Under the pieces are notes generated by a model that made no database searches, had not been told where the DNA came from, and saw only the letters and a program-made list of their open reading frames with translations. A program made the translations under genes and the position numbers. A stretch of 64,000 bases of DNA from Lachnospiraceae bacterium (GTDB lineage: Bacteria > Bacillota > Clostridia > Lachnospirales > Lachnospiraceae), in NCBI GenBank assembly GCA_910575155.1, contig CAJTDX010000009.1, positions 62,001 to 126,000 on the forward strand. Reading direction: 5' to 3'. Shown piece after piece: positions 19,620 through 23,876 of the stretch (position 1 is its first letter; every line of letters begins with the position of its first letter).

Positions 19620-20630
19620 TTGAATAATTTTAATAATAATTGGATGTTTAATCCCCCGAATCTGTTTGGCATGGGAAGGAATTACAATAGAAACTGCAGC
19701 CGAAACACAGTTCCAAATTCATCAAATTATAAATCTGAGGAAAACACGGCTGTATCAGATCCTTCTCAGCATACAAACGCCGCAGAAGCGGAAGAAAATG
19801 ATTCTTCTTGTGGTTGTGAGCCGGAACTGGTCGAAGCAGAGAAAACATTTGTTTCCCCCGACTGCTGCTGCCATTGTGCAGAGCGTGGTCCGCAAGGGCC
19901 AAAAGGAGAACCCGGCCCGCCCGGCTGTCCCGGAGAACGTGGAGAGCCCGGTCCGCCCGGCTGTCCCGGAGAACGTGGAGAACCCGGCCCGCCCGGCTGT
20001 CCCGGAGAACGTGGAGAGCCCGGCCCGCCCGGCTGTCCCGGAGAGCGTGGAGAGCCAGGACCTCAGGGGCCGAGAGGCGAGCCTGGTCCGCCCGGTTATC
20101 CTGGAGAGCGTGGAGAGCCAGGGCCTCAGGGTGTTACAGGCCCGCAAGGACCTCAGGGGGCGACAGGACCTCAGGGACCAAGGGGAGAAGAAGGCGCGCG
20201 CGGTCCGGCCGGTCCGCCTGGTTATCCGCAAAACAGTGCATTTGCATCATTTACAGGTCAGGATCTTATTTTACCGCAAAACGCCAGACTTCCGCTTAAA
20301 GCAGATATAAAGGATATCACAAAAAATATTTCTCTTTGTGATGAATATTCCATATCGCTGACGCCCGGATATTATACCGTTTATTATTATATTTCTGCGG
20401 TATTAAAAAGGAGTGGCTGTATAAAACTTACACCGATCGTTGACGACTGTCCGCAGTGGGAATTTGCTGCATACGCAGAATCAGTGAAGCGCAAAGAAAT
20501 ACTTGTAATATCAAGGTATTTTATGATAAAAATCCCCAGCCCTTCCATACTGTTCTTTGCATGGGACGCTTCTGCGGGAGTTTCTCCAGTCAATATGAAT
20601 CTGAGTATAGAAAAGCTTGGCAGACAATAA
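19620..20630 (+). CDS. Collagen-like repeat protein with Cys-containing triplets (probable spore-surface protein)
   Basis: 336 residues from TTG at 19620, chosen because GAGGTGG lies 6 bases upstream; the in-frame ATG at 19605 has no Shine-Dalgarno and overlaps it. Residues 1-70 are Asn-rich. A Cys cluster (SSCGCE, then CCCHC) precedes uninterrupted G-X-Y triplets at about residues 90-204, including four copies of GEPGPPGCPGER. The C-terminal domain (about 205-336) is a non-repetitive, beta-type region like the heads of BclA-type exosporium proteins, but with little sequence identity visible to me. It is probably transcribed with the glycosyltransferase 24 bases downstream. Function is inferred: a trimeric filament on the spore surface. 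Confidence 0.8.
   Translation: MNNFNNNWMFNPPNLFGMGRNYNRNCSRNTVPNSSNYKSEENTAVSDPSQHTNAAEAEENDSSCGCEPELVEAEKTFVSPDCCCHCAERGPQGPKGEPGPPGCPGERGEPGPPGCPGERGEPGPPGCPGERGEPGPPGCPGERGEPGPQGPRGEPGPPGYPGERGEPGPQGVTGPQGPQGATGPQGPRGEEGARGPAGPPGYPQNSAFASFTGQDLILPQNARLPLKADIKDITKNISLCDEYSISLTPGYYTVYYYISAVLKRSGCIKLTPIVDDCPQWEFAAYAESVKRKEILVISRYFMIKIPSPSILFFAWDASAGVSPVNMNLSIEKLGRQ
19905..20048 (+). repeat. Four tandem 36-bp repeats encoding collagen triplets
   Basis: Units at 19905, 19941, 19977 and 20013 differ at only one to three bases each and encode GEPGPPGCPGER. Diverged copies continue to about 20110. This is a coding tandem repeat prone to copy-number change without frameshift (36 = 12 codons). Confidence 0.9.
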
Positions 20631-20654
20631 GTTCAGAAGGAGGGAGAATCTGAG

Positions 20655-21999: not shown

Positions 22000-22058
22000 T
22001 CTGTAGAAATATAATAAAATATTATATTTTCAGATAATTAAGAAAGGATGTGGTTTTT

Positions 22059-23876
22059 ATGAATCAGAATAATTCATGTGGAAATTGTGATAATCAATGC
22101 CATCCGCCATGTTGTGAACGCGGTCCAGCGGGACCGAAAGGCGATCAGGGTCCTATGGGACCTCAGGGAATCAAAGGTGATCCTGGCTGTCCGGGTCCAA
22201 AAGGTGACAGAGGTGATCCAGGTCCTATGGGAGCGCAGGGCATTCCAGGTGTTCCGGGAGCGAGAGGGCCAAGAGGAAATACAGGTCCGGTAGGTCCTAC
22301 CGGAAATACAGGTCCGAGAGGTTATGCCGGACCGAGAGGTTATGCCGGACCTCAGGGAATCCAGGGTGTACAGGGTGTACGCGGTGATATTGGTCCCAAA
22401 GGAGATCCTGGCTGTGAAGGTCCCAAGGGAGATATCGGACCTCAGGGTCCGGCAGGACCAACAGGCCCGGCAGGCCCGGCAGGTCCGCAAGGAGAGATCG
22501 GACTTCAGGGTCCGAGAGGTATTCCAGGCCCGACGGGAGCAACGGGAGCGACAGGTCCTATGGGTCCGCAGGGCGTGACGGGGTCTCAGGGCATTCAGGG
22601 CGTGACAGGTCCGATTGGTCTGCAAGGTCCGAAAGGATGCCAGGGAGATGATGGTCCAATGGGAGCGACAGGCCCGACGGGAGCAACAGGCCCGACAGGA
22701 GCGACAGGAGCAACGGGAGCGGATGGAGCGGCAGGTCCGACAGGAGCAACGGGAGCAACAGGAGCGGATGGAGCGGCAGGAGCAACAGGTCCGACAGGAG
22801 CAACGGGAGCAACAGGAGCGACGGGAGCGGATGGAGCGGCAGGTCCGACAGGAGCAACAGGAGCGGATGGAGCAACAGGAGCGACAGGAGCCGATGGGGC
22901 AACAGGTCCGACAGGAGCAACAGGAGCAACAGGAGCGGATGGGGCAACAGGCCCGACAGGAGCAACGGGAGCGGATGGGGCAACAGGCCCGACAGGAGCA
23001 ACAGGAGTCGATGGAGCAACAGGCCCGACAGGAGCAACAGGAGCGGATGGGGCAACGGGAGCGACAGGCCCGACAGGAGCAACAGGAGCGGATGGAGCAA
23101 CAGGCCCGATAGGAGCAACAGGAGCGACAGGCCCGACAGGAGCAACGGGAGCGACGGGGGCAACAGGAGTCGATGGAGCAACAGGCCCGACAGGAGCAAC
23201 GGGAGCGGATGGGGCAACAGGTCCAACAGGAGCGACAGGGGCAACAGGAGCGGATGGGGCAACGGGAGCGACGGGGGCAACAGGAGTCGATGGAGCAACA
23301 GGCCCGACAGGAGCAACAGGGGCGACAGGTCCAACAGGAGCGACAGGTATTGCAGGTACAGGAGCGATCATTCCCTTTGCATCCGGACTCCCGGTTTCTT
23401 TAACAACAATTGCCGGAGGACTTGCGGGACTTCCAGCTTTTGTTGGTTTCGGAAGCAGCGCGCAGGGTCTTACGCTTCTGGGGTCCACAATTGATATTAC
23501 AAATGCCAGCGGAACGCTTTCGAACTTTGCATTCCAGGTTCCGCGTGCCGGAATCATTACTTCATTCAGCGCATTCTTTAGTACCACGGTATCGCTTTCT
23601 TTAATCGGTTCCACTGTTACAGTAAATGCGCAGCTCTATCAGTCAACAACGCCGAACAATGTATTTTCTCCGATTGCCGGAACCTTGATTAATCTGACTC
23701 CGTCACTTTCCGGAGTTGTATCTGTCGGTACATTGTTAAACGGCGCACTTACAGGACTCAATATCCCGGTAACGACGCAAACCCGTCTGATGCTGGTATT
23801 TTCAGCGACAGCGAGCGGCTTGTCATTGCTCAATACGGTTGTGGGATATGCAAGCGCAGGTTTAAGTATAAATTAA
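22059..23876 (+). CDS. BclA-like collagen-like glycoprotein (probable exosporium filament)
   Basis: 605 residues from ATG 22059 (AAAGGA about 11 bases upstream; GTG 22050 is the alternative). A short Asn/Cys-rich N-terminus is followed by unbroken G-X-Y triplets from about residue 22 to 434. The first half is mixed (GPKGDQGPMGPQ). The second half is Thr-rich (GATGPTGATGADGA), the type used for O-glycan attachment in BclA. The C-terminal domain (about 435-605, from IIPFASGLPVSLTT to VVGYASAGLSIN) matches the BclA C-terminal head fold found in spore-forming Firmicutes. A terminator follows. It is the best candidate for the spore's external nap. A long Leu/Pro-rich frame on the opposite strand is a by-product of the repeats. 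Confidence 0.9.
   Translation: MNQNNSCGNCDNQCHPPCCERGPAGPKGDQGPMGPQGIKGDPGCPGPKGDRGDPGPMGAQGIPGVPGARGPRGNTGPVGPTGNTGPRGYAGPRGYAGPQGIQGVQGVRGDIGPKGDPGCEGPKGDIGPQGPAGPTGPAGPAGPQGEIGLQGPRGIPGPTGATGATGPMGPQGVTGSQGIQGVTGPIGLQGPKGCQGDDGPMGATGPTGATGPTGATGATGADGAAGPTGATGATGADGAAGATGPTGATGATGATGADGAAGPTGATGADGATGATGADGATGPTGATGATGADGATGPTGATGADGATGPTGATGVDGATGPTGATGADGATGATGPTGATGADGATGPIGATGATGPTGATGATGATGVDGATGPTGATGADGATGPTGATGATGADGATGATGATGVDGATGPTGATGATGPTGATGIAGTGAIIPFASGLPVSLTTIAGGLAGLPAFVGFGSSAQGLTLLGSTIDITNASGTLSNFAFQVPRAGIITSFSAFFSTTVSLSLIGSTVTVNAQLYQSTTPNNVFSPIAGTLINLTPSLSGVVSVGTLLNGALTGLNIPVTTQTRLMLVFSATASGLSLLNTVVGYASAGLSIN
22671..23352 (+). repeat. Thr-rich collagen triplet array (9-bp based tandem repeat)
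   Basis: About 680 bp of near-identical 9/18/27-bp units (GGAGCAACAGG, GGAGCGGATGG and variants) encoding GAT, GPT and GAD triplets. Expect strain-to-strain length variation and assembly collapse here. Confidence 0.9.

What the first reader, a model, noticed from the sequence alone, without database searches (positions are those of the whole stretch)
19620..23876. Exosporium-like cassette: two collagen-like proteins flanking a GT2-TPR glycosyltransferase
A Cys-containing collagen protein, a glycosyltransferase with TPR half, and a BclA-type Thr-rich collagen protein with BclA-like C-terminal head are adjacent and near spore genes. This parallels bclA and its glycosylation locus in Bacillus anthracis and the BclA proteins of Clostridioides difficile, but here the enzyme lies between two structural genes. 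It would make a glycosylated nap on a gut commensal spore, which could affect adhesion and immune contact.
Basis: partly seen in the sequence, partly recalled or inferred. Interest (0 to 1): 0.72.

Follow-up and report, generated by a model that had tools for sequence, protein, structure and literature searches.

The report
Spore-surface collagens with their sugar-adding enzyme
A gut bacterium carries a three-gene set that most likely builds and sugar-coats a hairy collagen layer on its spores; the enzyme and one collagen match a pair already known from Clostridioides difficile, while the second, cysteine-bearing collagen looks like an addition that has not been described.

The parts
19484..19510 (+). 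sigma-K-like (mother-cell) promoter of the CLP-A/GT unit: AGC-N15-GCATATAAT
   Evidence: the relaxed motif A[AG]C-N15/16-GCATAT-[ATC][AC]T is in 52 of 70 upstream regions (L127 included) and in 0 of 309 control upstreams; the window has AGC where most have AAC, so it misses the strict motif
19620..20630 (+). CLP-A: Cys-containing collagen-like protein (TTG start; ATG at 19605 possible). N-terminal region 19620-19886, 38 Gly-X-Y triplets 19887-20228, head 20229-20627
20229..20627 (+). CLP-A head: BclA/C1q/TNF-type jelly roll
20655..21731 (+). GT2-TPR glycosyltransferase, SgtA type, 358 aa
   Evidence: 54% identity, no gap, to the enzyme of a C. difficile-like sgtA-bclA3 locus
21728..21754 (+). 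intrinsic terminator closing the CLP-A/GT unit (12-pair stem, then TTTTTTATTT)
   Evidence: the scan as a whole found no more terminators than its shuffles: 4 against 5.2; -16.3 kcal/mol, z -7.1
21972..21998 (+). sigma-K-like promoter of the BclB-type gene: AAC-N16-CATAAATT
22059..23876 (+). Thr-rich BclB/BclA3-type collagen-like protein (ATG start; GTG at 22050 less likely); 138 triplets 22122-23363, 67 with Thr at Y
23364..23873 (+). TIGR03721 head of the BclB-type protein
   Evidence: 207.9 bits, cut-off 93.15
23892..23932 (+). strong hairpin after the BclB-type gene (possible terminator; no clear T run, not listed by the terminator scan)
   Evidence: -24.2 kcal/mol, z -4.4

Best explanation
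This is a spore-surface (exosporium-type nap) locus. Inferred: late in sporulation, sigma-K in the mother cell transcribes two units. One makes CLP-A and the SgtA-type glycosyltransferase together; the other makes the BclB/BclA3-type collagen. The GT, in the mother-cell cytoplasm, puts a sugar, most likely beta-O-GlcNAc, on the many Thr at the Y position of the BclB-type repeats (67 in the window protein), and perhaps on the 2 of CLP-A. Both chains trimerise through their C-terminal heads. Their Cys-rich N-terminal parts are held on the maturing spore by disulfides, leaving the heads outward: a conserved BclB head on long sugar-coated stalks, and a faster-changing BclA/C1q-like head on shorter, cysteine-laddered stalks. 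Shown here: gene content, domains, the predicted CLP-A fold, homology to the sgtA-bclA3 pair, promoter motifs, a terminator, conservation. Inferred: timing, sugar, acceptor, trimers, disulfides and location.
For: GT: 192 of 356 residues identical, 0 gaps, to the GT of L141, whose next gene encodes a collagen beginning MSRNKYFGPFD and holding GPTGPMGPRGRTGP, nearly the BclA3 peptides of PMC7157674 Table 1. That collagen has TIGR03721 at 235.7 bits, the window's 207.9. SgtA activity is published (passages). Promoters; in C. difficile bclA1-3 are sigma-K controlled, and the second sigK promoter has boxes AC and CATATAAT. SigK and SpoIVA genes are in the genome. CLP-A head fold. Signal peptides: 2 of 70 CLP-A and 0 of 75 BclB-type N-termini reach a mean hydropathy of 1.8 (highest 2.16), against 2.47-2.66 in three window proteins that look secreted to me; LPXTG in 0 of 70 and 0 of 75, though only 52 of the 75 BclB-type frames have their head end. 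Conservation: 67 of 80 loci. In 61 genomes, 9 of 9 with TIGR03721 (8 over cut-off) also have the GT, and 7 of 7 with the CLP-A head have both.
Against: I found no expression, localisation or glycan data for any Lachnospiraceae member. CLP-A has only 2 Thr at Y (median 3 of 22 triplets over 70), so it may not be a substrate. 9 of 18 genomes with the GT at E<=1e-40 have no TIGR03721 protein, 15 of 28 distant GT loci show no collagen within 1.5 kb, and L105 and L113 carry the GT without either collagen nearby, so the GT can have other partners. The longer sigma-K -10 box CATANNNTA is not enriched upstream of CLP-A (8 of 71; resampled mean 7.6), and sigma-E cannot be excluded by motif alone. 27 of 71 and 29 of 75 upstream regions lack the strict motif.
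Confidence: 0.85

Rival explanations
1. A narrower form that fits inside the best explanation: the GT serves only the BclB-type protein; CLP-A is an unglycosylated cross-linker or anchor that merely shares the GT's promoter. (Its odds are not exclusive of the best explanation.)
For: CLP-A has 2 Thr at Y against 67 in the BclB-type protein, and Cys at X in 63 of 70 CLP-A. In 6 loci with upstream room (L060, L063, L072, L095, L098, L121) GT and BclB-type gene occur without CLP-A; the BclB-type frame is broken in L060 and L072 and cut by the contig end in L063 and L098.
Against: CLP-A is close to the GT, 13-29 bp in 60 of 69 cases and 40-211 bp in 9, which suggests linked functions.
Confidence: 0.45
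2. The collagens are adhesins of growing cells, like Scl or Lcl.
For: The Gly-X-Y parts score against Scl/Lcl models, as any collagen repeat does.
Against: Those scores are below the curated cut-offs. No signal peptide-like stretch in nearly all and no LPXTG seen; sigma-K-like promoters; TIGR03721 head.
Confidence: 0.05
3. The set is phage-derived: collagen stalks and jelly-roll heads resemble tail fibres, and phages carry similar GTs.
For: 28 phage records hold a relative of the GT; the best of the 8 listed is 37.5% identical over 81%, the others 22-28%. Phage spikes share the head fold.
Against: By eye no phage structural gene stands beside it in the ORF list (no phage-family scan was run); promoters are sporulation-type; far closer relatives sit in other bacterial genomes next to collagens.
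Confidence: 0.03

Closest known systems
Clostridioides difficile sgtA-bclA3 (PMC7157674, abstract and passages seen)
   Same: GT2-TPR of 358 aa, 54% identical and gap-free to the enzyme of a C. difficile-like locus; gene immediately upstream of a Thr-rich collagen with TIGR03721 head; sigma-K-like box upstream of the GT
   Different: The window adds CLP-A upstream in the GT's own transcription unit; the BclB-type gene has its own promoter after a terminator; the collagen N-terminus differs (MNQNNSCGNC against MSRNKYFG)
Bacillus cereus group BclA/BclB nap and BxpB/ExsFA
   Same: Collagen stalk plus head; CLP-A head is closest in fold to BclA, F-BclA and BxpB structures
   Different: CLP-A head is only 18-19% identical to BclA in the structural alignment; no PF18573 hit in the window protein; the enzyme is SgtA-like
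F-ENA locus of B. thuringiensis: F-Anchor, F-BclA and a nearby putative GT (PMC11952670, preprint, passages seen)
   Different: No Pfam family other than Collagen in the window collagens at E<=0.001, so no DUF4183; gene order and heads differ
GmaR and SunS, protein or peptide glycosyltransferases (function of GmaR recalled)
   Same: GT2 relatives by sequence: GmaR 22ao E 3.8e-25 over residues 4-183; SunS 7msn E 8.9e-15
   Different: Score far below the SunS family cut-off (66.9 of 350)
C. difficile CdeC/CdeM Cys-rich exosporium proteins (PMC6101409, passages seen)
   Same: Cys-rich spore-surface proteins that affect BclA complexes, the analogy for CLP-A
   Different: CLP-A is a collagen with a globular head; no homology was tested

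Membership tests
SgtA-type spore collagen O-GlcNAc transferase | GT-A (GT2) domain followed by TPR, about 358 aa, collinear with SgtA | tested here: met
   PF00535 75 bits, TPR hits weak; 192 of 356 identical, 0 gaps.
SgtA-type spore collagen O-GlcNAc transferase | gene immediately upstream of a Thr-rich collagen with TIGR03721 head | tested here: met
   the comparison collagen has the same head, 235.7 bits
SgtA-type spore collagen O-GlcNAc transferase | transfers GlcNAc from UDP-GlcNAc to Thr of collagen repeats | not testable with these tools
   needs an enzyme assay; published for C. difficile SgtA
BclB/BclA3-type exosporium collagen glycoprotein (gene 22059-23876) | Gly-X-Y region plus TIGR03721 head above cut-off | tested here: met
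BclB/BclA3-type exosporium collagen glycoprotein (gene 22059-23876) | late mother-cell (sigma-K) expression | tested here: inconclusive
   conserved sigma-K-like motif; no expression data
BclB/BclA3-type exosporium collagen glycoprotein (gene 22059-23876) | present and glycosylated on the spore surface | not testable with these tools
   needs proteomics and glycan mass spectrometry
Bacillus BclA proper, for the Thr-rich protein | BclA_C domain (PF18573) | tested here: not met
   0 Pfam families at E<=0.1 for the head alone
Bacillus BclA proper, for CLP-A | BclA_C domain (PF18573) | tested here: inconclusive

The most novel reading that the evidence does not exclude
Gut Lachnospiraceae spores carry a two-collagen nap: a conserved GlcNAc-coated BclB fibre and a second, disulfide-laddered collagen that shows a faster-evolving BclA/C1q-like head outward as a host- or neighbour-facing ligand. 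CLP-A would be a new class of spore-surface protein, made in the same unit as the enzyme that glycosylates the nap.
Probability: 0.3. Interest if true: 0.62.

Novelty: new variant of a known kind. Interest (0 to 1): 0.42.

Why it matters
Exosporium naps are usually told for the B. cereus group and C. difficile (so in the review PMC8953710, passages). If the reading is right, many commensal gut Lachnospiraceae make glycosylated collagen naps with the same enzyme class as C. difficile. Reagents against GlcNAc-collagen or BclA3 might then not be specific to C. difficile, and spore spread and immune contact of commensals would become testable by removing one gene. CLP-A gives a defined, conserved but faster-changing surface head to study.

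Tried and rejected
Rejected: that the Thr-rich head is BclA-like (one search finds no BclA_C; one search gives TIGR03721). Rejected as a conserved feature: linkage to spore genes. Ten neighbouring window proteins (SigF, SpoVAC, SpoVAD, SpoVAE and six others) matched 0 to 6 of 80 loci each, within held flanks of at most about 6 kb; and of 5 cassette-bearing same-genus genomes with spoVAC and spoVAD on one contig, the cassette lies between them in 2 (G000, G003). Considered: positive selection on the CLP-A head; its dN/dS is higher (median 0.164 of 822 estimable pairs; GT 0.069 of 716; BclB head 0.058 of 962; 990 pairs each) but far below 1, and dS is near saturation (medians 1.1-1.7), so only faster evolution is shown. 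Considered: a single gain of CLP-A; the GT tree needs 8 changes (3 forced by starred branches) and is consistent with an old CLP-A lost several times, but the bootstrap had not settled.

Weak or failed: the BclB head model is moderate (pLDDT 79.5) and its fold matches are poor (TM about 0.5 at best), so I draw no fold conclusion for it. The PDB sequence search with the CLP-A head profile found nothing below E 0.66. NCBIfam gave nothing for the CLP-A head at E<=1. SpoIVA is too common (51 of 61) to mark cassette carriers. Papers: of nine searches, looked for this kind of locus; no listed title or abstract start describes this three-gene set in Lachnospiraceae (all hits listed in 24, 57 and 93; 10 of 12 in 85; 12 of 541 in 94). 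The library holds open-licence papers only. I saw passages of PMC7157674, PMC3789822, PMC11952670, PMC8968730, PMC8953710 and PMC6101409, and no paper whole.

Limits of the counts: the 80 loci are the best 80 of 100 confirmed by a scan seeded with the window GT, so they lean to close kin. Start codons were picked by a pattern, and its CLP-A set includes L127, whose upstream collagen is another one. The relaxed promoter motif was chosen after seeing the window's AGC. The resampled controls do not correct for relatedness; the 309 control upstreams belong to mechanically chosen frames of 150 aa or more in the same loci. In one search CLP-A heads outside 125-140 aa (L071, L097, L114), L127, and BclB heads not of 170 aa were left out, leaving 45 sets, the window included. 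One search read 28 loci (fetching was capped at 30), fewer than the matches.
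Full report
What is there. Three genes stand on the + strand: CLP-A (19620-20630), a GT2-TPR glycosyltransferase (20655-21731) and a Thr-rich collagen (22059-23876). CLP-A has 38 Gly-X-Y triplets with Cys at X in four of them, in a 36-bp tandem repeat, 7 Cys before the collagen and 3 after it. The Thr-rich protein has 138 triplets, 67 with Thr at the Y position. Pfam and NCBIfam give Collagen for both, GT2 for the enzyme, and TIGR03721 (BclB-related head, 207.9 bits, cut-off 93.15) for the Thr-rich protein. 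The window lies in a 4.19-Mb genome in 148 contigs, 99.95% complete, which holds SpoIVA and SigK genes.

Units of transcription. CLP-A ends 24 bp before the GT; in relatives the gap is 13-29 bp in 60 of 69 and 40-211 bp in 9. A 12-pair terminator with a T run follows the GT (21728-21754; -16.3 kcal/mol, z -7.1), so the Thr-rich gene is most likely a second unit. Upstream of both units lies a sigma-K-like promoter. The strict motif [AC]AC-N15-17-CATANNNT occurs in 44 of 71 CLP-A and 46 of 75 BclB-type upstream regions, against means of 1.3 and 1.4 (highest 5 and 6) in 200 first-order resamplings and 4 of 309 upstream regions of other frames in the same loci. The box of the CLP-A matches is mostly GCATATAAT. 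In C. difficile the second sigK promoter has -10 CATATAAT and -35 AC, and bclA1, bclA2 and bclA3 depend on sigma-K (PMC3789822, passages). Against: the longer box CATANNNTA is not enriched upstream of CLP-A (8 of 71; mean 7.6), the window's own CLP-A box has AGC instead of AAC and fits only a motif relaxed afterwards (52 of 70; 0 of 309), and sigma-E recognises a similar -10 box (recalled).

The enzyme. A class-wide search found the GT in 56 of 341 genomes at E<=1e-70. Of 28 distant loci read, 13 have a collagen within 1.5 kb of the GT and 15 do not. I take it as the sgtA-bclA3 locus of C. difficile or a very close relative. Its enzyme and the window's are both 358 aa and align over 356 residues with 192 identities and no gap, and its collagen has the TIGR03721 head (235.7 bits). 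SgtA adds beta-O-GlcNAc to Thr of BclA3 repeat peptides in vitro, and its gene lies immediately upstream of bclA3 (PMC7157674, passages). The best PDB relatives of the window GT by sequence include GmaR and SunS.

Conservation. The 80 genome-contig loci (best 80 of 100) come mostly from records titled Lachnospiraceae or related gut Clostridia. In 67 the CLP-A head stands upstream and a collagen or TIGR03721 head downstream; in 19 of these the collagen frame lacks the head, 17 of them because the contig ends. L102 counts among the 67 though its BclB-type gene lies 2.4 kb further on. The other 13: GT plus BclB-type without CLP-A in L060, L063, L072, L095, L098, L121 and, with little upstream sequence, L092; CLP-A and GT without BclB-type in L053; contig end in L101; GT without either in L105 and L113; a remnant of the BclB-type gene in L122; another Thr-rich collagen upstream in L127. 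Among 61 genomes, TIGR03721 occurs in 9 (8 over cut-off), all with the GT (18 of 61 at E<=1e-40), and the CLP-A head in 7, all with both. The GT tree is consistent with an old CLP-A and several later losses (8 changes, 3 forced). A GT between two Thr-rich collagens also occurs in distant Clostridia (L164, with weak BclA_C heads; L028).

Rates. Over 45 sets with all three complete (990 pairs), median identity is 78.5% for the GT, 60.9% for the CLP-A head and 88.8% for the BclB head; the CLP-A head is the less similar of the two heads in 990 of 990 pairs. Median dN/dS is 0.069, 0.164 and 0.058 over 716, 822 and 962 estimable pairs, with dS near saturation. The CLP-A head evolves faster but under constraint.

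How it most likely works. Signal peptide-like stretches are rare: 2 of 70 CLP-A and 0 of 75 BclB-type N-termini reach a mean hydropathy of 1.8, while three window proteins that look secreted score 2.5-2.7; LPXTG was not found (52 of the 75 BclB-type frames have their head end). With the promoters this points to synthesis in the mother cell and assembly on the spore from the outside, as for BclA. The GT would act in the mother-cell cytoplasm on the Thr-rich chain. The Cys-rich N-termini and the Cys ladder would hold the chains by disulfides; in C. difficile the Cys-rich proteins CdeC and CdeM affect BclA complexes (PMC6101409, passages). These steps are inference.

Position. The cassette lies between spoVAC (11400-11882) and spoVAD-spoVAE (28392-29836). 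Ten same-genus genomes, the window's included, were examined. In 7 both genes lie on one contig, and in all 7 they are apart, by about 4 to 26 kb. Of the 5 of these that carry the cassette, it lies in this gap in 2 (G000, G003). The gap thus looks like a variable region of the genus, and the nearness to spore genes is no evidence of function.

Verdict. Its core is a homologue of a published pair, and the added, co-transcribed collagen with a BclA-like head is the new part. This three-gene set did not appear in the titles and abstract starts listed by five paper searches, which cover open-licence papers only.

Noticed in passing
window 11883-28391: The spoVA operon is split: spoVAC and spoVAD-spoVAE lie about 16.5 kb apart with the cassette, a bile salt hydrolase and other genes between. 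In 7 of 7 same-genus genomes with both genes on one contig (10 examined) they are apart: a variable region inside a core sporulation operon.
   Followed up: partly
L002 / L132 6700-8173 (G000:C38): A second BclB-like collagen in the same genome (TIGR03721 89.2 bits, below cut-off) with a broken reading frame (93 aa and 433 aa pieces); a relative (L047, G022) has an unbroken one. No GT among the ORFs listed beside it.
   Followed up: partly
L130 6262-6849 (G000:C44): A short collagen with a weak BclA_C-like head (25 bits, cut-off 38) beside another GT2 gene on the same strand: possibly a further small spore-surface pair.
   Followed up: partly
window 24025-25035: A bile salt hydrolase (choloylglycine hydrolase, 494 bits, cut-off 350) directly downstream of the cassette; a relative is near the cassette in only 1 of 80 loci.
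   Followed up: partly
window 41149-48806: A LacZ-type beta-galactosidase frame (1183 aa; 954 bits, cut-off 999) overlaps by 4 bases a second frame (1369 aa) with Listeria-Bacteroides repeats; it may be one long surface enzyme with a frame break, or two coupled genes.
   Followed up: partly
window 12285-15542: Two neighbouring proteins with signal-like starts both carry 165-bp tandem repeats.
   Followed up: no
L103 GT gene: An in-frame stop at codon 180 of the GT while CLP-A and the collagen remain: a possible natural GT loss or an assembly error.
   Followed up: no
L164 268-3786: In a distant Clostridia genome a GT2-TPR sits between two (GPT)n collagens with weak BclA_C heads, apparently an independent version of the same layout.
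   Followed up: partly
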